This document shows, one piece after another, positions 9,473-34,151 of a stretch of 34,318 nucleotides of DNA. The notes below the pieces were generated by a model. The model saw only the letters and a program-made list of their open reading frames with translations, searched no databases and had not been told where the DNA came from. Every line of letters begins with the position of its first letter. Position 1 is the stretch's first letter. Position numbers and translations under genes: made by a program. Source of the DNA: a virus; the IMG/VR virus record IMGVR_UViG_3300021197_000936, positions 1 to 34,318 of that record; one strand, written 5' to 3'.

Positions 9473-9620
9473 CCTTGGCTCTCCTGTAGAGTAATCGACC
9501 GTTGTAAACCGTGCAAGCAAACCAGCGCAAGACGATCACACGATCGAGAGACGTCCATTGATTAGACAAGATCCGCGAAGAGGGGATCGCGACGATCATC
9601 CCGTGGCGCGAATGGCGTTT
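9473..9620 (-). promoter_or_regulatory. repeated regulatory module, copy A
   Basis: Facing left, it contains TTGCAC (9516-9511), a 17-base spacer and TACTCT (9493-9488). The operator ACGGTT-TAC-AACGGT (9512-9498) lies mainly in the spacer and overlaps the -35 box. Upstream are GATC sites at 9534, 9542, 9570, 9585 and 9594, the box GAGACGT, and a distal CCCGTGGCGCG edge. It aligns over its length with copy B (10847-10993), with GATC spacings of 8-28-15-9 against 8-28-14-9. The leader forms a small hairpin, GGGG-ATGCA-CCCC (9474-9462). The distal part overlaps the last codons of the upstream gene. Confidence 0.85.
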
Positions 9621-10440
9621 CGAGTCCTCGCCCCCTGTAGTTCTCGAGCTTCTTCAGTAGCTCCCACCGGCGATCACGCAGGGCGAGTATCTGCCGAGCG
9701 GCTTCGGCTTTGCTCGCCACCTGCTCCGGCTTCGGTGGGTCCCATCCCCAGAGCCAGTGAAGGCGCTCGAGCCGGCGGGCCATCGAGACGCGATTCGGTC
9801 CGTTCCACTCCTTGAGGAGCCGCATCACCTGAGGCTGTCCTCGGCTGCTCCCGGTCGGGGAGTACCATCCGAGAACATGCTCGGCGAAGTTGTACGGATT
9901 CGAGAAGCCGGCCTCTGTGAACTGATCCGAGTCCTGGAGGATCGACGTGTGGTCTCGCCGATCGTAGTGTCTCCAGTCCTCCGACCACTCACCGCGGCCG
10001 ATCTTGAGGGTGTACCATCGATCCCAGATCCGGCGCTTGTCCTGCTTCCACAGACCCGGAGCTTCCAAGAGGTCGAGCACCTTCCACGGCTCGACGAAGT
10101 TCTTCAAGCCCCACTCGAGCGCGGTCTCTTCCTGCTTCGTGTCGACGCCGATCTTCCTCAGACATCGATCGCAGATCGTGAACCGATTCGGAAGGCCGCC
10201 CCACAAGGGCGACGCGCTGATTCGATCGTCTCGACATATGGGACCGATCTCGAAATTGTCGTACGGATCGTAGGGGTCCTCGGTCAAGTGAAAGCTGTCG
10301 TGACTGTGTCCGACGTTGTTCCCGCCGAGACCTCGGTCGGTATCGCCATCGAGCCACGTCGCCAACTTCGGCAAGGCTTCCGCCGCCCACTCCGACGGGT
10401 GCGGTCTGTCTGCCCATTCTCCTGTGATGTCGAATTTCAT
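9562..10440 (-). CDS. hypothetical protein, second gene of cassette B
   Basis: Encodes 292 residues from ATG 10440, with AGGAGGACGAG upstream in the 47-bp repeat; the frame continues upstream through the hairpin but that extension is rejected. It is rich in Trp and charged residues. There is a possible metal site (GPICRDD near 66-72 and ICDRCLRKIG near 89-98). The C-terminal half is helical (KPEQVASKAEAARQILALRDRRWELLKK). The last twenty or so codons lie inside module A, so its C-terminus seems to be made of regulatory DNA. No family recognised. Confidence 0.7.
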   Translation of the reverse strand: MKFDITGEWADRPHPSEWAAEALPKLATWLDGDTDRGLGGNNVGHSHDSFHLTEDPYDPYDNFEIGPICRDDRISASPLWGGLPNRFTICDRCLRKIGVDTKQEETALEWGLKNFVEPWKVLDLLEAPGLWKQDKRRIWDRWYTLKIGRGEWSEDWRHYDRRDHTSILQDSDQFTEAGFSNPYNFAEHVLGWYSPTGSSRGQPQVMRLLKEWNGPNRVSMARRLERLHWLWGWDPPKPEQVASKAEAARQILALRDRRWELLKKLENYRGRGLETPFAPRDDRRDPLFADLV

Positions 10441-10482
10441 CTCGTCCTCCTGTGTGATGGACTGGCCCCCCGGAGGGGGCCG
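10436..10482. repeat. 47-bp direct repeat, copy 2 (hairpin plus ribosome-binding leader)
   Basis: Identical to 8999-9045. The hairpin here is GGCCCCC (10464-10470) with GGGGGCC (10475-10481). It begins about ten bases after the stop at 10491 and ends in the start codon of the 292-residue gene. Exact identity across non-coding bases implies recent duplication or recombination between the two cassettes. Confidence 0.9.
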
Positions 10483-10490
10483 CGGGGTCG

Positions 10491-10838
10491 TTACGCTGCG
10501 ACCCGCCAGCGACGGCGGGCCCATGTCGCGACGTGTTGCTCGGCTTCGGCGAGGGTGTCGAATTCGCGCGTCCTGACGGCGCCTCCGTGGCTGCTGACTC
10601 CCTTCGTCGTGACCACGAAGACCGACCGCCCTCGGTAGTCGGTGGGGGTGCGTCCGGTCCACCGGGTTCCGATAGAGGCGCGGACCGACGAGCGGTCCTT
10701 CGTTCCGGGGTCACGGCCTGACAGGCTCGAGGCGTCGATGACGTGGGTCCCGGTCGGCTCGGTGATCCGGTACTGGCGAGCGGGTCCGTGGTGGTTGAAG
10801 TTCGAGGTCCATCCGAATCGGGCGGGGCGGGTTGTCAT
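10491..10838 (-). CDS. hypothetical protein, first gene of cassette B
   Basis: Encodes 115 residues from ATG 10838 with AAGGAGAACAAG upstream. It is basic, with predicted strands through the middle and a C-terminal helix (DTLAEAEQHVATWARRRW). No membrane segment or known motif. It is driven by module B (10847-10993) and followed by the 47-bp hairpin repeat. Not similar to the first gene of cassette A, although the flanking DNA is. Confidence 0.7.
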   Translation of the reverse strand: MTTRPARFGWTSNFNHHGPARQYRITEPTGTHVIDASSLSGRDPGTKDRSSVRASIGTRWTGRTPTDYRGRSVFVVTTKGVSSHGGAVRTREFDTLAEAEQHVATWARRRWRVAA

Positions 10839-10846
10839 CTTGTTCT

Positions 10847-10993
10847 CCTTGGTTCTCTCGTAGAGTAATCTACCGTTCTAAACCGTGCAAGCGAATCGAC
10901 ACGACACGATCACCCGATCGAGAGACGTCTATTGATTAGAGGCGATCGCCTACGGGGGATCATGACGATCACCCCGTGGCGCGCGCGTCGTTT
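10847..10993 (-). promoter_or_regulatory. repeated regulatory module, copy B
   Basis: Facing left: TTGCAC (10890-10885), 17-base spacer, TACTCT (10867-10862), operator ACGGTT-TAG-AACGGT (10886-10872). GATC sites lie at 10908, 10916, 10944, 10958 and 10967. The GAGACGT box and the distal edge CGATCACCCCGTGGCGCG are present. In the minus-strand reading the operator is a direct repeat of ACGGT with a ten-base period, i.e. one helical turn. The leader is CTCTACGAGAGAACCAAGGAG. The module ends exactly at the stop of the 443-residue gene upstream. Confidence 0.85.
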
Positions 10994-12323
10994 ATCGGGC
11001 GGCCGGGACGGCGACCTCGAGGGTCCTGGCCAGCATGATCACCCGAGCCCGGTCGGTGTACCGCTGGAGATACGCGCTGTCTTCGTTCATCTCGACGAGG
11101 ATGTCGTCGGCCTCCTGAGTGTCCAGAAGGTCGAAGCCGCGACCGTCTCCGGTGTGCATGGCTCCGAACTCGAGGACGTACTTCAAGACGTCGTCGTCGG
11201 CCATGTCCTCGGGGCTCGGGCGGTGGTCTCCGCTGACGTACTCCGCGACCTGGGCCCAGAACTCGCCCTCGCCCATGTCGTGGTCGAGGTACGCCTTCAC
11301 CTGTCCGAGGTGCTTCATCGACTCGATCCGCTCACACTCCGCGTCGATGCTTGAGCCGTCGGGAACATTCCACGCGCCGTCGTTGTAGTGGTGCCGACGG
11401 AACCCGGAAACCTGAGCGAGGAACTTCGAGAAGTCGATCTCGATGTCTCCGCAGAGCGTGTCGAGATGCTCTTGATCGTCCGCGCTTATGACGAGCCCGC
11501 CCGCGCCCTCGTCGCTGATGCTTCCCGATAGAATAGCCTCGATCGATTGAACCATGAACTCGCCGAGCTTGACTTCTTCGCGATCGATGGGCTGGTTCTC
11601 GTCGTCGATCTGACATCCTGCGTCGTCGAACTCGGTGAGCTTGCCTTGGACGTAGGCGAGAACACACTCAAGATCGCCTCTCATCTTGTGCTCGCGGGCT
11701 GTCATGGGCTCGACAGTGGTCTCGGTGGGCTCGACCTCTGCGACGTCCTGAGCGGGCTCCTGAGCCTTCTCCTCGGCGAGCTTCTTCGCGGCGGTGGCGT
11801 GATAGTGGTCCCAGTCGGCGGCCTTCTCCTCGGCGAGCTTCTTCGCGGCGGTGGCTACTTGGTCGCGGTAGTCGGCGTGGAGAGCCTCGTCGACATAGGC
11901 GAGATAGTCGGCGATCATGTTGTGGATGTCGAGCTTGAGTGACTTCTTCGCCTCCACAGTCCAAGAACCCGGACCCGGCTCAAAGTGATCTTTGTGAATC
12001 GAGAACGTTGTCGGATAATGTTCCGATGCCTCGGCCCATTCAGCGAAGGTTTGTACACAATTCGCGCGGCGGCCGATGAGCTTCCCGAATTTCTCCATCG
12101 AGGAGTCGGAGACAGAGGCGCTGTAGCCCCAGATCCAGCCGTGAGCGCGGCCAAAGGCCCTACCCGTCTTGATGCTCGCTACGTTGAAGCGCCAACTCGA
12201 GGTGCCCTTCTTGAGGTCAACGACGACAGTCATGTCTGCGTCGGGCACGTTGATCCTGTCGTAGTTCAAGATCTTGACTTGAGAGAAGGAGGTGAGAAGG
12301 GCGGAGAAGGAATCAATGCTCAT
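10992..12323 (-). CDS. large acidic hypothetical protein of cassette C
   Basis: Encodes 443 residues from ATG 12323, preceded by CACACAGGACAACAAC. Residues 1-140 look like a mixed alpha/beta domain. The middle (about 155-195) is a charged helix with a duplicated AAKKLAEEKA motif, probably a coiled coil. The C-terminal 220 residues are strongly acidic and helical. No catalytic motif was recognised. It is the largest cassette gene and has its own module (12361-12520). Acidity could suit DNA mimicry or binding of a basic host protein, but that is only a suggestion. Confidence 0.8.
   Translation of the reverse strand: MSIDSFSALLTSFSQVKILNYDRINVPDADMTVVVDLKKGTSSWRFNVASIKTGRAFGRAHGWIWGYSASVSDSSMEKFGKLIGRRANCVQTFAEWAEASEHYPTTFSIHKDHFEPGPGSWTVEAKKSLKLDIHNMIADYLAYVDEALHADYRDQVATAAKKLAEEKAADWDHYHATAAKKLAEEKAQEPAQDVAEVEPTETTVEPMTAREHKMRGDLECVLAYVQGKLTEFDDAGCQIDDENQPIDREEVKLGEFMVQSIEAILSGSISDEGAGGLVISADDQEHLDTLCGDIEIDFSKFLAQVSGFRRHHYNDGAWNVPDGSSIDAECERIESMKHLGQVKAYLDHDMGEGEFWAQVAEYVSGDHRPSPEDMADDDVLKYVLEFGAMHTGDGRGFDLLDTQEADDILVEMNEDSAYLQRYTDRARVIMLARTLEVAVPAAR
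11764..11855 (-). repeat. 35-bp direct repeat within the 443-residue gene
   Basis: The 35 bases at 11764-11798 recur unchanged at 11821-11855. They encode AxxAAKKLAEEKA twice, separated by a short DWDHYH segment. Identical codon use shows recent duplication; it keeps the frame and lengthens a predicted coiled coil. Confidence 0.85.
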
Positions 12324-12360
12324 GTTGTTGTCCTGTGTGTGTGTCGGCCGGGGTTCGTCC

Positions 12361-12520
12361 CCTTGGCTCTCTCGTAGAGTAACAACGGTTTAGAACCGTG
12401 ACAAATAAACCGACGAAGAACACGACAGACGATCGCCCCTGATCGCTGTACGTCTCGGGGTGATCGTTTTATTTTCGATCGTCGCGCCGGGGGTGATCGT
12501 CCGTGGCGCGTTCGTTGTTT
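12361..12520 (-). promoter_or_regulatory. repeated regulatory module, copy C
   Basis: Facing left: TTGTCA (12404-12399), 17-base spacer, TACTCT (12381-12376). The spacer holds a perfect palindrome, ACGGTT-CTA-AACCGT (12399-12385). GATC sites occur at 12431, 12441, 12462, 12477 and 12495; two sit in GGGGTGATCG repeats (12457-12466, 12490-12499). The block CGAGACGTACAGCGATCAGG is shared with copy D. The leader forms GGGG-ACGAA-CCCC just after the start of transcription. It fills the 196-base gap between the FmdB-like gene and the 443-residue gene. Confidence 0.85.
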
Positions 12521-12711
12521 TAGGCGTACCCGGTCGACGCCCATCCGCCGCCCTTCAGGACGAACGAACTCCGCGACACCTGCTTGACCATCTCCCGAGC
12601 GACGCCCTCGTCGATAGCGCACGAGGCGCAGTGAGGCGCGGGGGCGTCGGCCTTCTGAAGAACCTCGGCGACGTCTTGGCACTTGTAGCACTTGTACTCG
12701 AAGAGCGGCAT
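12520..12711 (-). CDS. FmdB-family zinc-ribbon protein
   Basis: Encodes 63 residues. It begins MPLFEYKC with C8-x2-C11 and C28-x2-C31, and ends with SRSSFVLKGGGWASTGYA. Both the opening and the SSFxLKGGGW-TGY ending are hallmarks of the FmdB family, small zinc ribbons described as putative regulators in bacteria. Its role in phages is unknown. The start overlaps the preceding stop by one base (TGATG), placing it as the last gene of the lysis block and just before module C, so it is a possible though weaker candidate regulator. Confidence 0.85.
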   Translation of the reverse strand: MPLFEYKCYKCQDVAEVLQKADAPAPHCASCAIDEGVAREMVKQVSRSSFVLKGGGWASTGYA

Positions 12712-12986
12712 CAGTTCCCCCGGTCGATGAGTCGGTCTAACTTGTGGACGATCTCTTTCGACTGAGTGTCCTCGCGCTCTCGGTACTCGGAGATCACTCG
12801 GTCGTAGCGCTCGCGCATCCTGTCGGTCCGCTGATCGTAGTCCTTCCGGATCTCTTCGATCTGCTCCTGGAACCCCTCGACAACTCGATCCAGTCTCTTC
12901 TGCATCACGAGGAATTGATACACGAGGAACGCGGCGAAGAGTCCGAGATGTCCACCCTCGAGAAGAGTATCGATCAGCGCTTCCAC
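12711..12986 (-). CDS. membrane coiled-coil protein, possibly BhlA/UviB-like holin
   Basis: Encodes 91 residues from a GTG at 12986 with GGAGTAACC upstream. One membrane helix lies near residues 14-30 (LGLFAAFLVYQFLVMQ). It is followed by a long, charged coiled coil (31-88). A single N-terminal helix followed by a charged helical tail is the layout of BhlA/UviB holin-like proteins, and it lies beside the endolysin. It could also be a structural membrane protein of the lysis machinery. Confidence 0.6.
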   Translation of the reverse strand: MEALIDTLLEGGHLGLFAAFLVYQFLVMQKRLDRVVEGFQEQIEEIRKDYDQRTDRMRERYDRVISEYREREDTQSKEIVHKLDRLIDRGN

Positions 12987-12988
12987 GG

Positions 12989-13567
12989 TTACTCCATCTC
13001 GATCAGGGTGTACGTAAAGCGGGGACCATATAGCTCGGCCGCTCTTTCACACAGACTTATCAATAGATCGAACTCATTTGGATCCGCTAAGACCTGACAC
13101 CCTGCGGAGAACTTCGAGACGGTCGGGCTCGTCCTGGAGGCGCTCGCTCTGTGGATGTTCAGCCCTACGACACCGGCCTCGTCGGTACCGGGGTTCATGT
13201 CGAGAACCTCGTCCCGGTTGTCGTCTCTCCAGTAGCGGACCGGGCGCGACTGTACGAGAGCCCGGTATCGGCTCCGGTGATACCCGAGGACATGGCTCCC
13301 TCGGTATTGACCGGGACACATGATCGCCGTCCCTCGGACGTTCATCGGGTTCTGTCTCCAGTAGACACCGGGGTCGGTGGTCGCTGAGAAGGTTCGAGTC
13401 ACCCACCCGTCGCCGTCTCGGTAGACGACACACAAGCGATCGTTGAACTCGTTCGAGGTTCGGTCCGGACTTCGGATCCCGATGATGTTCAAATTGTAGA
13501 GACCGCGCTCGAATACGGCGTGACCGCGTCGAGCTACTTCATCGAGTAAGGGCGGACGAACTGACAC
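12989..13567 (-). CDS. putative endolysin, L,D-transpeptidase-like catalytic motif
   Basis: Encodes 192 residues from a GTG at 13567 with GGTGA upstream. Residues 137-141 (NIHRA) and 154-159 (SAGCQV) provide His139, Ser154 and Cys157. The spacing and context resemble the His...S-x-G-C signature of YkuD-type L,D-transpeptidases, whose phage relatives are found in lysis cassettes. Upstream signatures GTAIMCPGQY and LGYHRSRYRALVQ recur in phage proteins of this type. There is no signal peptide, so export would need a holin. The substrate would be peptidoglycan cross-links or stem peptides, but activity is inferred. Confidence 0.65.
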   Translation of the reverse strand: MSVRPPLLDEVARRGHAVFERGLYNLNIIGIRSPDRTSNEFNDRLCVVYRDGDGWVTRTFSATTDPGVYWRQNPMNVRGTAIMCPGQYRGSHVLGYHRSRYRALVQSRPVRYWRDDNRDEVLDMNPGTDEAGVVGLNIHRASASRTSPTVSKFSAGCQVLADPNEFDLLISLCERAAELYGPRFTYTLIEME

Positions 13568-13570
13568 TCG

Positions 13571-13771
13571 TCACCGTACACAGTCAGCGGAGACGGCCAC
13601 ACAGACCGCTACTTGATTGGTCATGATCTGCCGGATGTCCTTCGCAAATTCTTCCTGCTTCTCTTCGACCTTCTCGACGCGGTCGCCCATGCTATCGAGA
13701 GACCACCATCCGCCACCGGCCAAGAAGACCGCACTTAACACGAAGCCGACTGTCTCGACGCTCAGGTTCAT
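13571..13771 (-). CDS. small membrane protein of the lysis block
   Basis: Encodes 66 residues with an N-terminal membrane segment (about 8-24, FVLSAVFLAGGGWWSL) and a charged helix (DRVEKVEEKQEEFAKDIRQI). One-pass topology with a soluble coiled coil fits an inner-membrane spanin or accessory holin. AGGAG precedes the ATG, which overlaps the previous stop (ATGA). Family not assigned. Confidence 0.6.
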   Translation of the reverse strand: MNLSVETVGFVLSAVFLAGGGWWSLDSMGDRVEKVEEKQEEFAKDIRQIMTNQVAVCVAVSADCVR

Positions 13772-14196
13772 CTCAGACTCCTATCGACCGCCACGTATCC
13801 GCCGAGGATTAGCCCCGCGACAATGGCTGTCTCCATTCTACCTAACCACCTCTGGCCCTTCGAGGTGTTCGGCCATGTCTGAGCCTGCGACAGTTCCGTG
13901 ATCTTCGTCTCGTACAACTGAAGCTCGAGCGCGCACTTCTCCGCGTCGAGCCGATGAACCTCCTCGAGTCCGATCGAGTACCGCTCCACCTGGAGAAGGT
14001 ACGCGAGCGACGACGTCGGCTCGGCTACGGCGGAGCACTTGGCGACCCCTGTATCGCTCATCCCGAACGGTAGCTTCTGACCGAAGCGGATCGGATAGGA
14101 CTCGGGGCACTCGGAAGCGGTGCGATCCGGTGGGGGAGGCCGGACCAACCGATCACCCCGAGCCCACGACACGCACAAGAAGAGGAGCACGATCAC
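13768..14196 (-). CDS. membrane protein with signal-like N-terminus, possible spanin component
   Basis: Encodes 142 residues from a GTG at 14196 (overlap GTGA). An N-terminal hydrophobic stretch (IVLLFLCVSWA) looks like a signal sequence or anchor. The central part contains Cys residues near 30, 54 and 88 and a helical region. A second hydrophobic segment lies near the C-terminus (about 122-136, AIVAGLILGGYVAVD). Its place in the lysis block suggests a role across the envelope. No clear lipobox is seen, so an outer-membrane lipoprotein is not supported. Confidence 0.55.
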   Translation of the reverse strand: MIVLLFLCVSWARGDRLVRPPPPDRTASECPESYPIRFGQKLPFGMSDTGVAKCSAVAEPTSSLAYLLQVERYSIGLEEVHRLDAEKCALELQLYETKITELSQAQTWPNTSKGQRWLGRMETAIVAGLILGGYVAVDRSLR

Positions 14197-14450
14197 CGAG
14201 AGGCCCTGCTCTCGTTCGAGAGGTCGGCGATCTTCCCGTCGGGGTCGTCACCCGTGACGAGTTCCGCTATCTCTTCGAGGTTGGCGCGTGTCGCCTCGAT
14301 CGCGCTGACCCTCTGGGCTTTCACGATCAAGTCCGTCTCGGCCCTCAGAGACGCCCTCACGGCCTCGGAACGTGCTCTCTCGAACATCCTCCACACCACC
14401 GCGAGAACGGCCACGAGTGCCGCAACTATCCAGCCCGAAGCCTCGGCCAC
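14193..14450 (-). CDS. small membrane coiled-coil protein (spanin- or holin-like)
   Basis: Encodes 85 residues from a GTG at 14450; AAGGGG lies just upstream and the preceding gene ends at 14453. A longer in-frame start at 14618 would overlap that gene completely and is rejected. A membrane helix (about 7-21, WIVAALVAVLAVVWR) is followed by a long charged helix. This N-in or N-out single-pass plan resembles i-spanins (Rz-like), but no family match is certain. Confidence 0.6.
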   Translation of the reverse strand: MAEASGWIVAALVAVLAVVWRMFERARSEAVRASLRAETDLIVKAQRVSAIEATRANLEEIAELVTGDDPDGKIADLSNESRASR

Positions 14451-14452
14451 GG

Positions 14453-14653
14453 TTACCCCTTGATCTCTTTCGCGGATGCGAAGTCGACCGCACCTTGAGA
14501 GAACAGGTACGAGATCACGATCGCCGAGCTTGCCTGAATGGCATCCCAGAGAGCGATATCCTCGCCGAGGTATGAGAGAGCGACCGGCGCGATCGCTCCG
14601 AGAAATGCGGCCCACCACTTTCGGGAGGTGAGCTTCGTCTTCATGAGGTCCAT
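14453..14653 (-). CDS. putative holin
   Basis: Encodes 66 residues from ATG 14653 with AAGGA upstream; a second in-frame ATG is at 14644. It has a basic start (KTKLTSRKWW), a first hydrophobic stretch (14-28, AAFLGAIAPVALSYL) and a second (about 38-51, AIQASSAIVISYLF), then a GAVDFASAK end. Small proteins of this plan (SRKFW start, EG-x-VD ending) are often phage holins, which make lesions in the inner membrane to release endolysin. It is the first gene of the lysis block. Confidence 0.6.
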   Translation of the reverse strand: MDLMKTKLTSRKWWAAFLGAIAPVALSYLGEDIALWDAIQASSAIVISYLFSQGAVDFASAKEIKG

Positions 14654-14668
14654 AGTCTGATCCTTGTT

Positions 14669-15817
14669 TTAGAGTGGAAGGTATACGTCGGCGGCCACGT
14701 GCATCATGTCTTCGTTGCCGACGTTGGTCGTAGAAGCGACGAAGGTGTCACCGCCGTCTGTCGAATAGAACATGTCACCTGTCAAGCTCACGGCAACGAA
14801 CGTAGACGAATCTGTCGCGATGCCGTAGACGTTTCCGTGTCCGGTGTTGTCTCCGCTGAAGTCGGCGCCGCTCTCGTCCATGGTGGTCGTCTTGCCGTTG
14901 ATGTCGAACGTTGACTTGAACTGACCACCGACGACAACGACCCGCCCTGCTGCGGCTGCGATGTGTCTCTGATCATCGAAGCACAGCGCGGCGTGATTGG
15001 CCAGAGTCGTTGCGCCCGACCAGTCGGTGAGGTCAGACGTGGAGGCCGTGTAGAACTTGCCATTGTTCACGATGCCCACGAGGAGCGTGTTGTTCGTGTA
15101 GACCATGCACCTAATCTTGCCTGGGTCGTTGCCACCGTCGAGCAGAGTGTGCATCAAACTCCATGAGCCCGACGCGCCGTTCTGAGTGCTCGTGTATATT
15201 CGGTTGTTCTGAGCGAACCACCAAGTGCCAGAGCCATTGGTTCTGATCGTGTAGATGCCTTCGGTGGTGATCCCGGTCACACCAGAGATGTCGATCACTT
15301 CCCAGTTGGTGCCATCGGTTGATCTCAATATCTCTTGGTTGTTGCTGGTCATATTGCCGACAGCGATCCAGACGTTGTTCCCCCACTCGATAGCGTAGCG
15401 CCTGATCCCGAGGTTGTTCCCGTCCTCGTCTTCGTTGATTCCGGTCCACGGACCGGAGGTGCCGTCGTCGTGGATCGCTATTTCGAGATTGTCAGCCTCG
15501 TAAAGCGCGACCCACAGACCATTGCCCGACCCGTCCTTCCCGTAGGCGACATAGAAATTATCGACTGAACTGCTCGGGAAGGGCGACGAGCCACCCGCGA
15601 AGGCGTCATAATCGGACCAGTCGTTGCCGGCGAGCAGGTTGGTGTTGCTGATGTGTCCGACCCTTCTGTCGTTACCACCGGCGACCCATAGCGTCGCGCC
15701 GGACGAGGTCGAAGGAACGGAGCACCCGTCGACCTTCTGGATCGAGCCTATGGCGATCCCGTCCACCTTGACGACACTCGCGGCCGCGACTCCTTGGAGC
15801 TTTGCGAAGTCGGCCAT
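14669..15817 (-). CDS. beta-propeller tail protein with Asp-box repeats (probable receptor-binding)
   Basis: Encodes 382 residues, starting immediately after the stop of the fibre gene. The N-terminal 35 residues carry a short repeat (VVKVDGI ... IQKVDG) that probably attaches it to the virion. The rest has recurrent strand pairs with Asp-box motifs (STDGTNWEV, STDGGDTF) and WVAVG/TFVAV-like strands, typical of sialidase/BNR beta-propellers. No sialidase catalytic set was identified. Position at the end of the tail genes suggests a host-surface-binding or glycan-binding tip. Confidence 0.7.
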   Translation of the reverse strand: MADFAKLQGVAAASVVKVDGIAIGSIQKVDGCSVPSTSSGATLWVAGGNDRRVGHISNTNLLAGNDWSDYDAFAGGSSPFPSSSVDNFYVAYGKDGSGNGLWVALYEADNLEIAIHDDGTSGPWTGINEDEDGNNLGIRRYAIEWGNNVWIAVGNMTSNNQEILRSTDGTNWEVIDISGVTGITTEGIYTIRTNGSGTWWFAQNNRIYTSTQNGASGSWSLMHTLLDGGNDPGKIRCMVYTNNTLLVGIVNNGKFYTASTSDLTDWSGATTLANHAALCFDDQRHIAAAAGRVVVVGGQFKSTFDINGKTTTMDESGADFSGDNTGHGNVYGIATDSSTFVAVSLTGDMFYSTDGGDTFVASTTNVGNEDMMHVAADVYLPL

Positions 15818-17647: not shown

Positions 17648-17650
17648 TGA

Positions 17651-17977: not shown

Positions 17978-17987
17978 GTGATGATCC

Positions 17988-26375: not shown

Positions 26376-26827
26376 GATCCCGCCTTCTCGCTGTATGTGA
26401 TCATACACTGAACGACGACAGCGCCCATCGTGGGCCGCTGTAATTCGGCACCGTCGAAGGACATCATATCGAGGGAGACATCGTGGACGAGAGAGTTCAG
26501 GCTTCGGTCAGACTCGAGCGCCTTCATGATGTCCGATCCAAGGTTGAGCGCGGCCGATACTGCGGTCCCTGGTGAGTCGTTCGCCGCCGATACCCAGCCC
26601 TCTAATTGGATCATGAACTGTCGATCGTAGCGGTTGAGGGCTGTCGTCCCCGTCTGTGTGCTACGGATGGAGCCGGGGAAGATGTACACACCCGGCACTC
26701 GGTGAGGCTGGAAGGTCTGACCGACGACGACCGAGTCGTCTCCGGACAGGTCGTAAGTGTACCCGGAGCCGGTGATCCCTTCGAGGTCTGTCTTGATCCT
26801 CGCGATGATGTCGGTCTCTTTACTCAT
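26372..26827 (-). CDS. putative tail terminator protein
   Basis: Encodes 151 residues from ATG 26827 with GAGGTTAG upstream. Size, alpha/beta composition (KETDIIARIKTDLEGITG; a YDRQFMIQLEGWV strand) and location between gp10-like and tube genes fit the ring protein that ends tail polymerisation (like lambda gpU). Sequence resemblance is weak. Confidence 0.65.
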   Translation of the reverse strand: MSKETDIIARIKTDLEGITGSGYTYDLSGDDSVVVGQTFQPHRVPGVYIFPGSIRSTQTGTTALNRYDRQFMIQLEGWVSAANDSPGTAVSAALNLGSDIMKALESDRSLNSLVHDVSLDMMSFDGAELQRPTMGAVVVQCMITYSEKAGS

Positions 26828-26829
26828 GA

Positions 26830-27468
26830 CTAACCTCTAACACCGGAAGGGCCGAAGATGATCGTCTTCTGTAGTGCGCGGAGGATGTCGTCGTTCATGG
26901 CGCGACCGGCGGTCCTGATGGCGGGGCTCAAGTAAGGCCGCGCCGGGTACTTGATCGAACGGCGGAGAAGATAGAACACCTCGCCGCTGTCCTTGTGGAT
27001 GAGCATCTTCTGACCCGCTGCGCTCTCCGCGTACTGGAGATCCGGAACGTCGCGCGCGCTTGCGTACCTGTTCACACCGCCGGCGGTTCGGAGGCTGTCG
27101 TGAATCGGGATCGTCAGCATCTTGCTCTTCATGTGGATCGTCCCGCCGTACTCGTGGATCGCCGCGTATGCCACCGGGCCGGGGTCGCTCGTGGTGCTCG
27201 GGCTGAGTTGCTTCGAGTTCGGAGAGCGACCACCGGACGCGACCTCGATCACTATGGCGTCGCCCTCGGTGTGTACGCTTCCACGGATCGACGCTCGAAG
27301 TCTACCGGTCCGGACGTTCAGCCTCGTGAAGCCTCCAGCGGTCACGCGAAGCTTTGCCTCTTTCTCGGCCCTGAGTGCGGTCTTCACAAGCTCGCGGAGT
27401 AGCGCCCCGCGTAGCTCTCGACTCGACCTCGACAAGTGGTCCGCGTACTCTTGGAGGGTCATCGACAC
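26830..27468 (-). CDS. HK97 gp10-like head-tail protein
   Basis: Encodes 212 residues. The start is GTG 27468 with GGGA upstream, or ATG 27462. The pattern NVRTGRLRASI (about 51-61), YAAIHEYGGTIHMK (99-112) and ARPYLSPAI near the end is characteristic of HK97 gp10-like proteins, which sit at the head-tail junction. It lies directly after the connector gene. Longer than the usual 130-150 residues because of inserts around 70-95 and 125-170. Confidence 0.88.
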   Translation of the reverse strand: MSMTLQEYADHLSRSSRELRGALLRELVKTALRAEKEAKLRVTAGGFTRLNVRTGRLRASIRGSVHTEGDAIVIEVASGGRSPNSKQLSPSTTSDPGPVAYAAIHEYGGTIHMKSKMLTIPIHDSLRTAGGVNRYASARDVPDLQYAESAAGQKMLIHKDSGEVFYLLRRSIKYPARPYLSPAIRTAGRAMNDDILRALQKTIIFGPSGVRG

Positions 27469-27471
27469 CGG

Positions 27472-28074
27472 CTATCCCATCCAAGCCGAACCCATGCGCC
27501 AAGGGGCGACGAGTTCCTTCACCTCGGGGAGAAGGCCGAGAGATGCGACCTCGATCGATCCTCCACCTTGCGAGACCTTGTTCCGTCCGACGTGGTCGCG
27601 GGCTTGCCATATGTGCGCGACCTGAAGTCCGACCGCCTGCTTGATCTCTTGGGGTACGCTCGAGAAGCCGGCGGTCATCGTGACCTTGATCGCTCGTGGA
27701 GTCTTCGTCCAGTGGCCGTGCGTCGAGTCGTGCTTGAGCATCACGAGACCCTCGTTCCCATAGAGCGTGTAGTCGGACGAGGCGATCAAGTCGGCGCTGT
27801 CGTCGTAGCTCAGGTCGGGGTCATCGTAGATCGACGAGATGGCTGTCGTCGGTATCACTGGGAGGTCGAGTCTCTTCGTGTTGTCTCCGGTCAGATACAC
27901 GACGTAGGTCCCAGACGAAAGAGAGTAGACGCCCGAATTCATGAGAGGCCAGCCGAGATAGCGAGCGAGGACCGGGTTCACCCGATCGACGATCGTCTCG
28001 ATGTTGCTGTCTTCAGCCGTACCGGACAGGCCCCGGATATACAGACGACAGTCGCTCCCGCTGACAACGGCCAC
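27472..28074 (-). CDS. head-tail connector (gp6-like adaptor)
   Basis: Encodes 200 residues from a GTG at 28074 with GAGGAG six bases upstream. The helical start (DSNIETIVDRVNPVLARYLGW) and later IKVTMTAGFSSVPQEIKQAVGLQVAHIW match the phage gp6-like connector family, which makes a ring below the portal. It follows the small lysine-tailed protein and precedes the gp10-like gene, as in HK97. Confidence 0.82.
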   Translation of the reverse strand: MAVVSGSDCRLYIRGLSGTAEDSNIETIVDRVNPVLARYLGWPLMNSGVYSLSSGTYVVYLTGDNTKRLDLPVIPTTAISSIYDDPDLSYDDSADLIASSDYTLYGNEGLVMLKHDSTHGHWTKTPRAIKVTMTAGFSSVPQEIKQAVGLQVAHIWQARDHVGRNKVSQGGGSIEVASLGLLPEVKELVAPWRMGSAWMG

Positions 28075-28077
28075 GCG

Positions 28078-28248
28078 CTACTCCTCAGAGGCCGCTGAGG
28101 CCTTCTTCGTCTTCTTGGGGGGTGCTACCTTAGACAGCCACGCGGGCGCGCTCTTGGCGGCCTTGGCGTCGAGTTCTTTCACTTCGCCGGGGGTCCAGTA
28201 GAACCCTCTCGGATACTCGCCTTGTGCGTCGCTCTTGAACTTGATCAT
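28078..28248 (-). CDS. 56-residue lysine-tailed protein
   Basis: A short frame overlapping the preceding stop as ATGA, with AAGGCGG upstream. The sequence begins MIKFKSDAQGEYPRGFYWTPGE, then a helix ending in a Lys/Ala-rich tail (KVAPPKKTKKASAASEE). Its tail resembles that of the neighbouring 95-residue protein. It stands in the head-tail gene order where small head-completion proteins are often encoded. Function unknown; basic tails could contact packaged DNA or the capsid's inner face. Confidence 0.65.
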   Translation of the reverse strand: MIKFKSDAQGEYPRGFYWTPGEVKELDAKAAKSAPAWLSKVAPPKKTKKASAASEE

Positions 28249-28532
28249 GTGTCCGCCTTCTTCTTGGCGCGGGGTGCGCGCTTCTTGACTGTTCTCGGGG
28301 CCTTCGGTGCGCTTGCCTTCATGGCGCGCGGCTTGGCCTTCTTGGGTGGTTCTTCTTTCTTCTCTTCCGCTCCCGCCTCGAACATGTGTGGGAACGTCTC
28401 CAGGAGATAGGCCGCCACGTCGTCGGAGACTTCTCGCTTCTCACCTCTGAACCATACGGTCCCGAGCCCAGGGAGTGATCCCCGGTAGTGATCCCGCTTG
28501 CTGTCTTCCTTGAACGTGACGACCTTTCCCAT
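28245..28532 (-). CDS. 95-residue protein with histone-like basic tail
   Basis: Residues 1-50 form a small domain (VTFKEDSKRDHYRGSLPGL, VWFRGEKREVSDDVAAYLLE) seen near capsid genes in other phages. Residues 55-95 are a tail of Lys, Ala and Pro repeats (KKAKPRAMKASAPKAPRT), similar to histone tails and to the tail of the next protein. AGGAG lies rather far upstream of ATG 28532. Possible role: head protein that binds packaged DNA. Not assigned to a named family. Confidence 0.65.
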   Translation of the reverse strand: MGKVVTFKEDSKRDHYRGSLPGLGTVWFRGEKREVSDDVAAYLLETFPHMFEAGAEEKKEEPPKKAKPRAMKASAPKAPRTVKKRAPRAKKKADT

Positions 28533-28534
28533 GC

Positions 28535-28915
28535 TTACGCGCGCTCCTGCTCGAAGGTCAGGAACACGTTCCCGGCCATCGTCGCGGTACCTGTCTCGTC
28601 GAGTGTCATCTTCAAGACATCAGCCGCGCCGAACTCGAGGCTCGGGCCAGCGGCCGACAGGGTGAACGCGTACGCGGTCCCGACATCCCACCCGGCGGCG
28701 TCTGAATCCAGAGCCGAAGAGATAGACGTCGAGCCCTGCTTGAGGGTGATCGTGTACTTGTTCGAGGAGCCGTCCGCGGTTGCGGTCGTTGGAATGTAGC
28801 TCGCCGCGGTGAGCTTCCACTCGCCGGACTGGCCATGGACGGCACCGAGAGAGTCGGTGTCCGCTGAGACGTCGCCCGTGTGAACGGCCATCGTTATTGA
28901 TTGTGGCTTGGCCAT
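28535..28915 (-). CDS. putative head decoration protein
   Basis: Encodes 126 residues from ATG 28915 with AGGAGG upstream. It is beta-rich and of low charge (YTITLKQGSTSISSALD; DVLKMTLDETGTATMAGNVF). It lies immediately downstream of the capsid gene, where decoration (head-fibre or cement) proteins are commonly encoded. Position and fold type are the only evidence. Confidence 0.55.
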   Translation of the reverse strand: MAKPQSITMAVHTGDVSADTDSLGAVHGQSGEWKLTAASYIPTTATADGSSNKYTITLKQGSTSISSALDSDAAGWDVGTAYAFTLSAAGPSLEFGAADVLKMTLDETGTATMAGNVFLTFEQERA

Positions 28916-28924
28916 GTCGGCCTC

Positions 28925-30406
28925 CTATGATGCTGAGAGGTTGAAGGAGAAGTGGACGTTCTTCTTCGTCGAGGAATCGACGCTGAAGAAGACGTGGCGG
29001 TCGGTCAAGACGAGATTGTGAAGTCCCCGAGTGATGTCCGCCGCGACAGCGTACGAGTTCCGCAAGCGTCCGATCTTGAAGCGCGCACGGTTCAGCATGA
29101 GCATCCCAGTCTTCGAGCCGCCGGATCCGTAGAGTCCGTCGGCGTCCAAGTCTGCGCCCATCATCTCCGAGATCACAATCGGAACACCCATCAGCTGTCC
29201 AAGCTCGCCGGACAGAATTGTTGCGGAGGGTCCGTACTGATTGACACCAACGACGCCAGCGGCGGCGCCGGACTCGGTACCGAATCCAAGCATCTTGACC
29301 AAATAGTACTCGGGGCTGACGATCGAAACGAGGTCTCCGGCTATGCCATGAGGCGAGGCAAGCTTCGCACGAGCGGCAAGGAACCCGGCGATCGTTTCGG
29401 CTGAGCCTTGATCGGTCGTGTTGCTCACGTCGAACGCGCGGTGTCGGAGGCCGACATAACAGCGCCTGTGATCTGCACTGGATCCAGTCGATGATCCCCA
29501 TCGGCTACGGATGTTCCAATTTGCATACTCGTCGGTGTTGCCGGTTCCATCTGCTGTATCCGTGTTTCCATTTACGATACAGTCTTCTTCTCCGTCGATA
29601 ATGGCGCTTCGAAGCTCACTTTCGATGAGTGGCATCGCGGCGATAATCGAGTCTTCCGAGGCGTCGTCGTCAACTTGAGCACGGACGACCATCCCGATCG
29701 CGCTGATCGTGCGGCTGTCTGTCGTGAGGCTGCTCGAAGAGAACTGAGCCGGGTCATCGGAGGACGCTGCCCCCTTCTTGAACGGTTTCAGACCTGTCGA
29801 TAAAATTGGCAGTATCTCATTTTTGTTGCTCATCTGCATGGTCTGGAAGAGGCTCGCCACGCGGCGCTCCGCTGTCAGGTCACGCTCGAATTGTGCGAGG
29901 TGCTGGTCGGGTATCCATTCCGCTCCGGCGTTACTGGAGTCTGACCACAGACGCTGTACGGTCTTGGGTGCGCGGTCCATGATGTCACGACACAACTGAA
30001 GCGACTTCGGCGCGCCGTTGCGAGACACGGCCTTGGCGATCGTGTACTGCTGGACAGCCTTCTGGAGATCGGCTTGCCAGTCACAGACCGGAGCGGCGTC
30101 GAGGATACCCTCGGCCCATGGTCGATCGGCGGTTGCCTCGCCCTTCATGCGGAGAGTACCGTCGCGTCGAACGAATCGATCGAGACTGGCTTCGCCGTCC
30201 ATGTCGGGGCGCGCGGCCTTCCGATTCTCGATCTCGGTCAGACGTGCGGACAGCTTCTTGAGGTCCTCCGCCTTCTTCTCGATCTGTTGGTGCATGTTGT
30301 CGCCACGAGCGGCGAGTGTCTTCTGACTCTCGACGATGTCGTGTAGACCCTTCTTGATGTTCTCGGGGCTGGACAGATCCAAGCCCTTGATCTCGATGTC
30401 GCTCAT
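28925..30406 (-). CDS. major capsid protein, HK97 fold
   Basis: Encodes 493 residues from ATG 30406. An N-terminal scaffold (delta) domain of about 110 residues is a coiled coil (NIKKGLHDIVESQKTL ... KLSARLTEIENRKAARP) that the protease would remove. The rest has HK97 features: a loop region (ERRVASLFQTMQMSNKNEILPIL), PLIESELRSAIIDGEEDCIVNG (spine helix) and the C-terminal IVSPEYYLVKMLGFG / GVPIVISEMM segment. It assembles into the icosahedral shell. The protease is encoded just upstream. Confidence 0.93.
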   Translation of the reverse strand: MSDIEIKGLDLSSPENIKKGLHDIVESQKTLAARGDNMHQQIEKKAEDLKKLSARLTEIENRKAARPDMDGEASLDRFVRRDGTLRMKGEATADRPWAEGILDAAPVCDWQADLQKAVQQYTIAKAVSRNGAPKSLQLCRDIMDRAPKTVQRLWSDSSNAGAEWIPDQHLAQFERDLTAERRVASLFQTMQMSNKNEILPILSTGLKPFKKGAASSDDPAQFSSSSLTTDSRTISAIGMVVRAQVDDDASEDSIIAAMPLIESELRSAIIDGEEDCIVNGNTDTADGTGNTDEYANWNIRSRWGSSTGSSADHRRCYVGLRHRAFDVSNTTDQGSAETIAGFLAARAKLASPHGIAGDLVSIVSPEYYLVKMLGFGTESGAAAGVVGVNQYGPSATILSGELGQLMGVPIVISEMMGADLDADGLYGSGGSKTGMLMLNRARFKIGRLRNSYAVAADITRGLHNLVLTDRHVFFSVDSSTKKNVHFSFNLSAS

Positions 30407-30463
30407 GTTGCGGCCTCTTGTGTGGGGTTACCGTTGGGGGTTATCGGTCGACGGCGCATTGAA

Positions 30464-31285
30464 TCAACACCCGAAGAGCGAAGTTATAGGATCGACCTTG
30501 GTCTCTTCGGGCGCGGTGCGCTCGATGGGCTTCCGGTCGGTCTTGGTTTGTTGTATCAGATTTTCGTCCGATGCGGCGAGGACTTCGAGAACGAGGTCGC
30601 GAACATCGTCCGCCGACATCCTGATCGACTTGTCCTCCTCGTCCTCCTCGTCGTCGTACCCGTAGCCCTCGACCTCGGGGGCCGTAGGCTCGAGCGACTC
30701 GACGCCTCTCCACTCGTCGGACTTGCCGAAGGTGACGACGACGGTCTCGTCGTTCTCGACGACCTCCATCACGTGGCGAGCCACGGACGGGATCCCGAGC
30801 GAGCGGAGCGCCAGGGCGGCCGGGTTCGCGGGTACGTTCACGACCGAGATCTCGTGAAGATAGCTGTCGGAGTAGACGAAACCGGAGGAAGAACGCCGGG
30901 GATCGTCTTTCGACAGCGCGGCGCGGGGCGTGCTCTTTCCGGGCGCGAAGCCGACCGAGACGCTGTTCAGAAAGCCCCGCTCGATCTGCGACTTGACGAG
31001 CCGCCCGAGTGCGTTCTCTTCGGAGTCGTCGAAGCGGATGTCGGCGACGAGCTTCCCGTCGACTACCTCGACCCGCTCAGCGCGGCCGATGGCGGGGATC
31101 GTTGGGTCGTGTTGCCAGAGGATGATCGGGTTCGACCGGTACTCCTCGAGACCTTTCTCGCTCCACGACGGGTCGACTATATCGCCGTACCTGTCGACGT
31201 CCGGGGTCGAGGCTATGACGCGGGTCAAGCCGTCGCCGGTCTCGGTTGCCTTGATCTGTACTGTCTGGAATTTGCGGTTCTTCAT
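30464..31285 (-). CDS. prohead serine protease (HK97 family, U35)
   Basis: Encodes 273 residues from ATG 31285 with GAGGACTGAG upstream. It cleaves the capsid scaffold domain and itself during maturation. The catalytic His is probably His59 (WQHDP) and the serine Ser108 or Ser110 (SVSVGF at 108-113), with further family segments VVNVPANPAA (152-161). The C-terminal 100 residues are acidic (DDEEDEEDKS) and may act as a scaffold tail inside the prohead. The 57-base gap before the capsid gene shows no clear promoter. Confidence 0.92.
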   Translation of the reverse strand: MKNRKFQTVQIKATETGDGLTRVIASTPDVDRYGDIVDPSWSEKGLEEYRSNPIILWQHDPTIPAIGRAERVEVVDGKLVADIRFDDSEENALGRLVKSQIERGFLNSVSVGFAPGKSTPRAALSKDDPRRSSSGFVYSDSYLHEISVVNVPANPAALALRSLGIPSVARHVMEVVENDETVVVTFGKSDEWRGVESLEPTAPEVEGYGYDDEEDEEDKSIRMSADDVRDLVLEVLAASDENLIQQTKTDRKPIERTAPEETKVDPITSLFGC

Positions 31286-31288
31286 GGC

Positions 31289-33946
31289 TCAGTCCTCGCC
31301 GTTGAGTGATGCGGTCACCGTGCACCGACAGTTGATGTCTTGAGAGGCGACGCCGAAGCCGCCCGGAGACGCGGTCTCCAAGCCGTTGACCTTGAACTTC
31401 TCGCCCGGTTTGATCGGCGGATGGCGGTCGAGTGTTCGGTGTTCGTCGCGAACGACCTTGTCTCTCGCGCTGAGCCAGCGATACCGGACCTCGAAGCCAG
31501 CCTCGGACAGTTCGGTGTACCCTGCGATCGTTCCGCTGTTGACGGCCCGCGTCGTCTCTGTGCGTGCGATTCGGAGAGCGCGCATAGGCGAGTACACTGT
31601 CGACCTCTGCATCGCTCGTTGCATCTCTGCGATCGTCGCGCCCTCAGTGAGACCCGCGGTGATAACCTTCGCGACGCCCTCCCTCGTGTAGAGGTTGTAG
31701 TGTGTGACGAGTTCTCCGATCTGAGCGTTCACCGCGCGGTCGACTCGTACGGGGCTCATCGTCGCCGAGTACTCCGGAGGCATCTCGTCGAACGCCTTCT
31801 GAACGGCGTCCTCGAACATCTCGCGCATGGGCTCGGCGACAGCGCTCTTCAGGATCTCAGCCTCGGCCAACTCGTCGAGGATGGCGTCGATCGTCTTCTT
31901 CGATGCTTGTCGGGTGACTGCGCTCGGGCCGTCCTTGCCGATCTCCTTCTTGAGTCGGCGAGCCGCTCGGGCTCCGGCGGCGACGAGGTACTTCTTCAGG
32001 ATGTCCTCGAGCTTCTTCTCGTGCGGTTCGTGTACTCGCTCGATGAACGAACGCCACACGAGATCGTCGGGGGTCGCGTCGGCCTCTGTGGATAACTCAC
32101 GAACGATCAGCCCTTCGAGGCCCTTCTTCTCGTCTGCCTTTTCCATCTGTCCGACGAGCTTCGCCGACCATGACTCCGCCGCGTCTCCGCCCCATAGAGC
32201 CCAGGCCACGCGGCCCGGTGAGGGGAAGCCGTCCTCGCCAGGGCTGAAGCCCTCGCCGGACTTGTCGCTCTTGTGACGTGCGAGCCAAGCCCGCATTTTG
32301 ATCGCCTTCTCCGGGGAGATGTCCTCGCCCTTCGACATGCGTCGCGCCCATGTCACAGTCGCCGGCGTCAAGCCGTCACCGCTCAGGCCCAACTCATGCC
32401 ACGCGAGGCCGCGCTTCAGTTCAGCGACGACACCCTTCGGGACCTTGAAGTCGATCGAGTCGTAAGGCGCGCGGGTGAGTGAGCGAGTAGCGTCGGCCGG
32501 TTCGGCGGGTGCGGCTTGCGCTCCGCTGATGATCCGCCGTGCTTGAGCTTCTGAGACCGTCGGGAAGGCCGCGCCAATGAGGGCGACCGCTGCGTCCGAG
32601 GACAGGAGGCCGGCCGAGACTTGGCCGAGGATCGCGATCATGCTCGCCACCTGCGCGCCGTTGAGGGCTGTCGCGCTCATGGGCTGGTCGGCTGGGGTAC
32701 CCGGTACGCCCTCTCCACCCTCGGCGCTCTCGCCTTCTTGGGGCTCTTGGTCCATGCCAGGGAGATCGGAGAAGCCCTCGTATGAGGCCGCGTCGTTAAG
32801 CGGTACGCCCATCGTGACCCACTGAAGCACACGACCGACCCGCTCGTCTCGGCTCTCGGAGAGCGCCTCCACGGAGGAGAAGTCGTGGTACACCTGAACG
32901 TCGGTTTCCTCGTAGCCGGGGAACATGCGAGCGAGCCGGGAGAACTGTCCGTCGATGATCGTCGCCTTCGACTGGAGTCCGCTCCACCAGTGCTTCGCCT
33001 GCTGGGCTGCGGTGGCGTAGTTCACAGAGGACCCGCCGAGTCGCGTCGGAGGACAATCGAAGACGGCGAGGATCGACTCGACGACGCCCTTCTTCAGTTC
33101 CTTGTACTCGAGGTCTCTCGGGCTGAACTGGAGCGACTCCATCTTCGCGGCCCCGCCCAAGAAAAGGGCGCCCCCGGTTCCAGACATCTGAGAATCGAAC
33201 ACTCGGCGCATCTGCTTTAGTTGCTGATCGGACCAGATGTCGGAGGGGTCCGCCGGCGAGAAGACTGTCGTCGGGCGTCCGGTCTTGGCCGATGCCGCCG
33301 CCAACTCCGACGCGAGCTTGTCGGTCGTGAGGTCGTTCGCCAGGGCTCGGATCGCTCCGTTGCCGTAGAGCCCCTTCGGGTCATCCTCCCAGGAGGTGAG
33401 CCGGAAGTGAAGAACCTGTTCCCACTCGTACCGCTCGGGCCGTCCTGCTCCGTTGTACTCGAAGTGCGAGACCTGACCGTCGGACATCGGGACGACCTTC
33501 ACGCGGCCGGGGTGCAGTCGAAGCAGCACCTCGGGCCGATCTCGTCCGCTGACAAGAACGTACGCGTCCCCACAGAGGACGAGGTCGCACGCGATCTGTC
33601 GTCTCAGGTGATCCCCTGAGATGCGCGACGAGGGGCGGTTGAGCAAGTCGAGCACCGGGTGATCCTCGAGCGGCTCGGCGTCCGCGCCCTTGCCGATCTT
33701 CACCTTGAGGTCGAGACTCGCGAGGTCGGCCGCGATCGCGTCCATGGCGGCCTTCACATATGGGAACACGGCGACAGTGCTCAGGCTGTTGGCTACGGGG
33801 TAGCCCGGCGTGGCTGGCTGTCCGCTCGCGAAGTCCGCCCCGGCTACGTGGACCGACTCTCCGGTGTCCTGACGAACGCCAGCAAGACCGAGAGCGCGGA
33901 GCATACGGAGAAGGATCGGATCGTTCTGGACGAGTTCGTTCGCCAT
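31289..33946 (-). CDS. portal protein fused to Mu F-like head morphogenesis domain
   Basis: Encodes 885 residues. Residues 1-430 are a typical siphophage portal (NSLSTVAVFPYVKAAMDAIA, then HPVLDLLNRPSS; VYHDFSSVEALSESRDERV). The middle (about 500-600) contains the RGLAWHELGLSGDGLTPATV and PSPGRVAWALWGGDAAESW signatures of a separate phage domain. The C-terminal 100 (about 786-885) is the Mu F-like domain, with RIARTETTRAVNSG, VVRDEHRTLD and DINCRCTV. ATG 33946 is chosen because the upstream extension overlaps the regulatory module 33992-34151. Portals usually end near 400-500 residues, so this is a threefold fusion. It forms the DNA entry ring; the MuF part likely faces the head interior. Confidence 0.9.
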   Translation of the reverse strand: MANELVQNDPILLRMLRALGLAGVRQDTGESVHVAGADFASGQPATPGYPVANSLSTVAVFPYVKAAMDAIAADLASLDLKVKIGKGADAEPLEDHPVLDLLNRPSSRISGDHLRRQIACDLVLCGDAYVLVSGRDRPEVLLRLHPGRVKVVPMSDGQVSHFEYNGAGRPERYEWEQVLHFRLTSWEDDPKGLYGNGAIRALANDLTTDKLASELAAASAKTGRPTTVFSPADPSDIWSDQQLKQMRRVFDSQMSGTGGALFLGGAAKMESLQFSPRDLEYKELKKGVVESILAVFDCPPTRLGGSSVNYATAAQQAKHWWSGLQSKATIIDGQFSRLARMFPGYEETDVQVYHDFSSVEALSESRDERVGRVLQWVTMGVPLNDAASYEGFSDLPGMDQEPQEGESAEGGEGVPGTPADQPMSATALNGAQVASMIAILGQVSAGLLSSDAAVALIGAAFPTVSEAQARRIISGAQAAPAEPADATRSLTRAPYDSIDFKVPKGVVAELKRGLAWHELGLSGDGLTPATVTWARRMSKGEDISPEKAIKMRAWLARHKSDKSGEGFSPGEDGFPSPGRVAWALWGGDAAESWSAKLVGQMEKADEKKGLEGLIVRELSTEADATPDDLVWRSFIERVHEPHEKKLEDILKKYLVAAGARAARRLKKEIGKDGPSAVTRQASKKTIDAILDELAEAEILKSAVAEPMREMFEDAVQKAFDEMPPEYSATMSPVRVDRAVNAQIGELVTHYNLYTREGVAKVITAGLTEGATIAEMQRAMQRSTVYSPMRALRIARTETTRAVNSGTIAGYTELSEAGFEVRYRWLSARDKVVRDEHRTLDRHPPIKPGEKFKVNGLETASPGGFGVASQDINCRCTVTASLNGED

Positions 33947-33981
33947 GGTCCGAGCATACAGCGAACGAGCCACCCTGTCGA
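33947..33981 (-). promoter_or_regulatory. candidate promoter of the structural operon, possibly leaderless
   Basis: On the minus strand TCGACA (33981-33976) and TATGCT (33958-33953) are 17 bases apart, a near-consensus sigma70 promoter. Only six bases separate the -10 box from the portal ATG at 33946, so transcription would start at or next to the start codon. No strong ribosome-binding site precedes this ATG, which agrees with a leaderless message. It is divergent from module D. Confidence 0.5.
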
Positions 33982-33991
33982 GAACCGGCCC

Positions 33992-34151
33992 AAACCGCCG
34001 CGCGCGCCACGGGGTGATCGCGGGGTGATCGTCTCGGGTGATCGCGATCATCTTGCGAGACGTACAGCGATCAGGGGCTCCAGGTGATCGCCTAACTTGT
34101 CGATTTATTTTGCACGGTTCAAAACCGTGTTACTCTACGAGGGAACCAAGG
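33992..34151 (+). promoter_or_regulatory. repeated regulatory module, copy D
   Basis: Facing right: TTTGCA (34109-34114), 16-base spacer, TACTCT (34131-34136), with a perfect palindrome CACGGTT-CAA-AACCGTG (34113-34129). GATC sites at 34016, 34027, 34040, 34046, 34069 and 34086, three of them in GGGTGATCG repeats (from 34012, 34023 and 34036) and one in GGTGATCG (34083). It shares CGAGACGTACAGCGATCAGGG with copy C and the distal edge CGATCACCCCGTGGCGCG (complement at 34003-34020) with copy B. The leader runs CTCTACGAGGGAACCAAGGAG into the ATG at 34160. Confidence 0.85.

What the first reader, a model, noticed from the sequence alone, without database searches (positions are those of the whole stretch)
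9534..34089. GATC clusters with conserved spacing upstream of all four promoters
Each module has 5-6 GATC sites in 63-74 bp (9534-9597, 10908-10970, 12431-12498, 34016-34089), far above the roughly 0.3 expected for such a length in GC-rich DNA. In copies A and B the spacings are 8-28-15-9 and 8-28-14-9. GATC clusters beside promoters or origins are known for methylation-sensitive switches (pap, agn43) and SeqA binding. The phage encodes a DPPW methyltransferase (2492-3187), so methylation state could report the age or replication status of phage DNA.
Basis: partly seen in the sequence, partly recalled or inferred. Interest (0 to 1): 0.75.

Follow-up and report, generated by a model that had tools for sequence, protein, structure and literature searches.

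The report
Repeated phage promoter modules with GATC arrays
A bacterial virus carries four copies of one control region, each with a row of GATC sites in front of a promoter that drives a swappable small gene; close and distant relatives keep the layout, so it is a real regulatory element, but whether DNA methylation controls it is not shown.

Summary
Four modules (A, B, C on the minus strand; D on plus) each hold 5-6 GATC in 63-74 bp, and they are the only 74-bp stretches of the window with five or more. The stated background (0.3) is too low: GATC occurs 11.5 times per kb, so about 0.8 is expected. Cluster number alone is unremarkable; location is the signal.

The GATC sites belong to a composite promoter cassette: GCGCCACGG boundary, GATC array, a 13-bp element (GAGACGTACAGCG, either orientation) centred about -73 or -80, more GATC, then a sigma70-like promoter with a CACGGTTnnnAACCGTG dyad in the spacer. 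The D cassette is nearly identical in two related phages while its cargo gene differs. A distant phage (L063, terminase 45% identical) keeps the element, its promoter spacing and a 3+2 GATC layout.

GATC cores are conserved above their flanks (20/20 against 27/50 columns). However, several sites read TAATC instead, which favours a protein-binding site over an obligatory methylation mark. The phage methyltransferase's target is unknown, although a relative's gene at the same locus belongs to a Dam-type family. A methylation switch stays possible (about 25-30%), unproven.

The parts
9470..9612 (-). Module A: GATC array 9534-9597, variant element GAGACGTCCATTG on + at 9548-9560, promoter and leader; drives 9440-9057
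10844..10993 (-). Module B: GATC array 10908-10970, variant element GAGACGTCTATTG on + at 10922-10934, promoter; drives 10838-10491
12353..12520 (-). Module C: GATC array 12431-12498, element GAGACGTACAGCG at 12444-12456, promoter; drives 12323-10992
33993..34159 (+). Module D: GATC array 34016-34089, element GAGACGTACAGCG at 34057-34069, promoter; drives 34160-34312. Near-identical in L001 and L008
9498..9513 (-). Dyad CACGGTTtacAACGGT in the promoter spacer of A (putative operator)
10872..10887 (-). Dyad CACGGTTtagAACGGT in the promoter spacer of B
12385..12400 (-). Dyad CACGGTTctaAACCGT in the promoter spacer of C
34113..34128 (+). Dyad CACGGTTcaaAACCGT in the promoter spacer of D
9483..9494 (-). 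-10 region TTACTCTACAGG of A
10857..10868 (-). -10 region TTACTCTACGAG of B
12371..12382 (-). -10 region TTACTCTACGAG of C
34130..34141 (+). -10 region TTACTCTACGAG of D
9057..9440 (-). Cargo gene of module A (127 aa, no family match above cut-off)
10491..10838 (-). Cargo gene of module B (115 aa, no family match); followed by 10440-9562 (292 aa), whose last codons overlap module A
10992..12323 (-). Cargo gene of module C (443 aa, no family match; about 63% identical in L001's contig behind an orthologous module)
34160..34312 (+). Cargo gene of module D (50 aa, no family match); L001 and L008 have different genes here
2492..3187 (-). DPPW N6/N4 DNA methyltransferase; target unknown; possible modifier of the GATC sites
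7353..7568 (-). Small ribbon-helix-helix-like protein (weak match), candidate binder of the dyads

Best explanation
Each GATC cluster is the upstream control region of a composite promoter cassette present in four copies, so that four small gene sets form one phage regulon. A regulatory protein, or several copies of one, binds sites with the core TRATCG (mostly GATC) on both sides of a second conserved site, GAGACGTACAGCG. That second site is centred at about -73 or -80, where class-I activators can sit. The combined complex sets the activity of a sigma70-like promoter. In this clade a second protein probably acts through the dyad in the -35/-10 spacer. The downstream genes are exchangeable cargo. 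Shown: copy number, anatomy, conservation in relatives, GATC conserved above its flanks, cargo exchange. Inferred: protein binding, activation or repression, shared timing. Any effect of GATC methylation is an added possibility (about 25-30%), not needed by the model.
For: Only the four modules have at least 5 GATC per 74 bp. Modules share the GCGCCACGG start, the dyad and TTACTCTACGAG. D against L001 and L008: the upstream region is nearly invariant while flanking genes are about 80% identical and the cargo differs. In A, B and A' (L001), GATC columns are 20/20 invariant against 27/50 others (p = 1e-4); for the distal three sites 12/12 against 6/22. The element occurs in both orientations at fixed distances: -80/-81 in C, D, D' and L063_2; -73 in A, B, A' and L063_1. 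The orientation flip argues for double-stranded DNA recognition rather than RNA. L063 (terminase 45%) has two such modules, one directly after the terminase gene as in D. TAATC replaces GATC at several array positions.
Against: No DNA-binding protein has been shown to bind, and the consensus promoter scan did not pick modules A-C out (the -10 is non-consensus). Helical phasing of the GATC sites is weak (p = 0.04, uncorrected). The dyad is not seen in the L063 or L122 spacers (read), so the regulation is not uniform across relatives. L118/L122 keep the element and a promoter without a GATC array, so GATC is not indispensable to the element.
Confidence: 0.6

Rival explanations
1. A methylation-sensitive switch. 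The phage (or host) methyltransferase methylates GATC, and binding of a regulator to the arrays depends on full, hemi- or no methylation, so the four promoters respond to replication or to the previous host, as with Mu mom or pap.
For: GATC cores are retained while flanks drift. The MTase is the best conserved neighbouring gene (90-91%). The same locus in L003 holds a PF05869 Dam-family protein, and a phage Dam with the NPPY motif was shown to methylate GATC in lactococcal phage phi93 (PMC4190342). L005/L006 (probably one virus) have no MTase at the locus and 0 GATC against 17 and 26 expected. Records with modules and the region covered (window, L001, L063) all carry the MTase.
Against: MTase specificity is not established. 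TAATC substitutions at several array sites. Many phages with 61-81% identical MTases show no GATC arrays or modules in the DNA held. L005/L006 are also CpG-poor, so their zero may have another cause. GATC use in genes follows general codon context.
Confidence: 0.27
2. Packaging or replication sites: the arrays are pac/cos-like or origin-like elements (P1 pac has seven TGATCA/G hexamers), and the promoter association is secondary.
For: GATC density resembles P1 pac (161 bp, seven hexamers; PMC10028697). D lies between terL and portal and is extremely conserved. The MTase gene sits beside the terminase genes.
Against: Four copies, each immediately upstream of a promoter at fixed distance. Three copies lie far from terL. 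L003/L004 have terL directly followed by portal, without any D module.
Confidence: 0.06
3. Incidental GATC: the sites are only part of repeats copied with the promoter, with no function of their own.
For: Paralogous copies inherit GATC. GATC is common in this genome (11.5/kb), and simulated genomes often hold one or two such clusters.
Against: Core conservation above flanks. C and D have different distal sequences but both have arrays. L063_1 has a 3+2 array although little else of the module is alike.
Confidence: 0.1

Closest known systems
Phage Mu mom promoter (Dam sites bound by OxyR) and E. coli pap/agn43 switches (own knowledge; GATC clusters in regulator sites reviewed in PMC8212987)
   Same: Several GATC sites within an upstream regulatory region, spaced around a promoter.
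   Different: 5-7 sites rather than 2-3; four copies in one phage genome; no OxyR or Lrp site recognised; methylation not shown; some sites TAATC.
Bacteriophage P1 pac site (PMC10028697; PMC12707154)
   Same: Dense GATC array in a phage with its own methyltransferase gene near packaging genes.
   Different: Not a single site; attached to promoters; two relatives (L003, L004) lack it beside the terminase gene.
Multi-copy phage operators/stoperators (e.g. mycobacteriophage L5; own knowledge)
   Same: One control sequence repeated at several places of a phage genome, with a dyad in the promoter.
   Different: Here a 150-bp composite of array, second element and promoter; no immunity repressor or integrase identified in the window.
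Phage-borne orphan Dam methyltransferases (lactococcal phage phi93, PMC4190342)
   Same: Phage adenine methyltransferase gene beside packaging genes; a PF05869 member occupies the homologous locus in L003.
   Different: The window's enzyme is a different, DPPW/MT-A70-like enzyme of unknown target.

Membership tests
Dam-dependent promoter switch (mom/pap type) | GATC sites inside the regulatory region of a promoter | tested here: met
Dam-dependent promoter switch (mom/pap type) | GATC is methylated in the host or by the phage | not testable with these tools
   No methylation data; MTase target unknown; host unknown
Dam-dependent promoter switch (mom/pap type) | Identified regulator whose binding depends on methylation | not testable with these tools
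   No regulator identified; only a weak ribbon-helix-helix candidate for the dyad
Dam-dependent promoter switch (mom/pap type) | GATC (not merely ATC) strictly kept at the regulatory sites | tested here: inconclusive
   20/20 columns in A/B/A', but TAATC at -80.5 in A and B and at -103.5 and -60.5 in L063_2
P1-type pac site | Single methylation-dependent cleavage site used by the terminase | tested here: not met
   Four promoter-linked copies; absent between terL and portal in L003/L004
Phage multi-copy promoter/operator regulon | Same control sequence at several promoters of one phage genome, conserved in relatives | tested here: met
Phage multi-copy promoter/operator regulon | Phage-encoded regulator binds the repeated sequence | not testable with these tools
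   Candidate 7353-7568 only
GATC-specific phage methyltransferase (for 2492-3187) | Methylates GATC | not testable with these tools
   Indirect only: PF05869 Dam at the same locus in L003; no GATC in MTase-less L005/L006

The most novel reading that the evidence does not exclude
A phage regulon of four promoters reads the methylation state of its own DNA: the phage methyltransferase marks GATC arrays that flank a conserved activator site, so incoming methylated genomes and freshly replicated genomes express the cargo genes differently. This would be a phage-encoded, replication-coupled timer across several accessory genes.
Probability: 0.2. Interest if true: 0.8.

Novelty: new variant of a known kind. 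Interest (0 to 1): 0.5.

Why it matters
The modules define a regulon in an uncultured phage lineage and mark a set of unknown, exchangeable genes as co-regulated, probably early, genes. They offer a compact test of whether phages use their own DNA methylation to time transcription, a question answered so far for very few phages. The 13-bp element shared with unrelated phages points to a widespread unknown regulator.

Tried and rejected
- Selection for GATC genome-wide through Asp codons: GAT is favoured before C, but so is nearly every T-ending codon; rejected.
- RNA element: no Rfam match, the region is upstream of the promoter, the element occurs in both orientations, and single-strand folding is modest and uneven; rejected.
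- Exact 17-mer in prokaryote genomes: scattered hits without the module in the 200-bp contexts, taken as chance.
- GCGCCACGGGRTGATCG in viral contigs: all new hits lacked a GATC array.
- Strict promoter pattern in viral contigs found nothing because the relatives' spacers differ.
- AlphaFold of the methyltransferase failed (pLDDT 36).
- Element in named phages and plasmids and in papers: none found.
- Helical phasing of GATC: only weak.
- ORF 12320-12691 overlaps module C and its tblastn hits are the module DNA; not treated as a gene.

Full report
OBSERVATION. GATC occurs 396 times in the 34,318-bp window (11.5/kb; 346 expected from trinucleotide counts). The four reported clusters are exactly where stated, with the stated spacings, and are the only stretches with five or more GATC in 70-74 bp. 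Order-3 Markov genomes hold 1.6 such clusters on average, so the number four is not by itself remarkable (21 of 300 simulations reach it). The coincidence with promoters is: 21 of the 28 noncoding GATCs lie in 604 bp of modules, against 7 in the other 1131 bp of noncoding DNA.

CONTEXT. The window is an IMG/VR virus record encoding terminase, portal, head, tape-measure, Erf, RusA, Gp157 and a DNA methyltransferase. Its two ends join in the gene order seen in L001 and L008, so it is probably a complete circularly permuted genome. Almost all genes are on the minus strand. Modules A-C drive minus-strand genes between the late block and the replication block; D drives a short plus-strand operon inserted between terL and portal. 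L003 and L004 lack that insertion.

ANATOMY. In promoter orientation each module reads: GCGCCACGG, GATC array, element, further GATC, promoter. The promoter is TTGCAC-like, with a spacer holding CACGGTTnnnAACCGTG, then TTACTCTACGAG. The element is GAGACGTACAGCG in C and D. In A, B and the L001 homologue A' it lies in the opposite orientation, exact in A' and degenerate in A and B. Its centre lies at -80/-81 in the forward orientation and at -73 in the reverse orientation, taking the last base of the -10 as -7. These are positions typical of class-I activators (own knowledge).

RELATIVES. The D module is nearly identical in L001 and L008, although flanking genes are only about 80% identical at the DNA level and the gene behind the promoter is different in all three. 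L001's contig also has modules homologous to A and C. In L001 two modules drive genes with the shared stretch RFQALNLNGSDL, read. The distant phage L063 (terminase 45%, methyltransferase 68% identical) has two modules. One lies directly after the terminase gene, as in D. The other has three distal and two proximal GATCs around the element, as in A and B. Both precede sigma70-like promoters with 17-bp spacers (read).

IS GATC ITSELF CONSERVED? In the alignment of A, B and A', all 20 columns of the five shared GATCs are invariant against 27 of 50 other columns (p = 0.0001); for the three distal sites it is 12/12 against 6/22. In A and A' these three sites also encode Asp codons of the upstream gene, but in B they are noncoding in my gene calls and still conserved. 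Against strict conservation, A and B read TAATC where A' reads TGATC, and L063_2 reads TAATC at two array positions. A core TRATCG bound by protein fits most of these sites.

METHYLTRANSFERASE. The enzyme at 2492-3187 (DPPW, N6_N4_Mtase/MT-A70-like) is 90-91% identical in L001 and L002. At the same locus L003 has a PF05869 Dam-family protein, G004 has a weak D12-like one, and L005/L006 have none and contain no GATC in 9.5 and 12.9 kb (17 and 26 expected). Those two are overlapping pieces of probably one virus, which is also CpG-poor. A phage NPPY-type Dam is known to methylate GATC (PMC4190342). This makes GATC methylation plausible but does not establish it; most relatives with 61-81% identical methyltransferases lack arrays and the element in the DNA held.

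A WIDER ELEMENT. The 13-bp element is part of a longer conserved sequence, AATGCAGAGACGTACAGCGTTTAG, in otherwise unrelated viral contigs. There it is repeated or lies next to sigma54-like (TTGGCACG-N4-TGC) or sigma70-like promoters (L114, L117, L125, L127, L118/L122). It is therefore probably the site of a widespread regulator, and the GATC array is an addition of this lineage.

CONCLUSION. The finding is real and regulatory. The best-supported reading is a repeated composite promoter that makes exchangeable cargo genes one regulon, with GATC-cored protein sites around a conserved activator-like element. A methylation switch is a live, testable rival.

Noticed in passing
L114 (minus, 7405), L117:3668, L125:310, L127:9225, L122:7340: AATGCAGAGACGTACAGCGTTTAG or a close variant recurs in unrelated viral contigs, often repeated and beside sigma54-like TTGGCACG-N4-TGC or sigma70-like promoters; regulator unknown.
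   Followed up: partly
window 1-34318: CTAG is absent (0 against 34 expected); the same near-absence is seen in many relatives, but not in L070.
   Followed up: partly
window 2492-3187; L003:2-565; L036/L037; L005:6996-7122: The methyltransferase locus is occupied by unrelated methyltransferases in different relatives and is empty in L005/L006, which have no GATC.
   Followed up: partly
L070:1-14687: A phage fragment with a 61% identical methyltransferase has 262 GATC against 162 expected, spread through genes.
   Followed up: partly
window 34318/1: The two ends of the record join in the gene order of L001 and L008, so the genome is probably complete and circularly permuted.
   Followed up: yes
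window 8999-9055 and 10436-10492: Intercistronic linkers with a GGCCCCCCGGAGGGGGCC hairpin are repeated (93%), which together with the promoter modules gives homology for cassette exchange.
   Followed up: no
window 38-499: Low-GC-looking 153-aa gene without family match, second gene behind module D.
   Followed up: no
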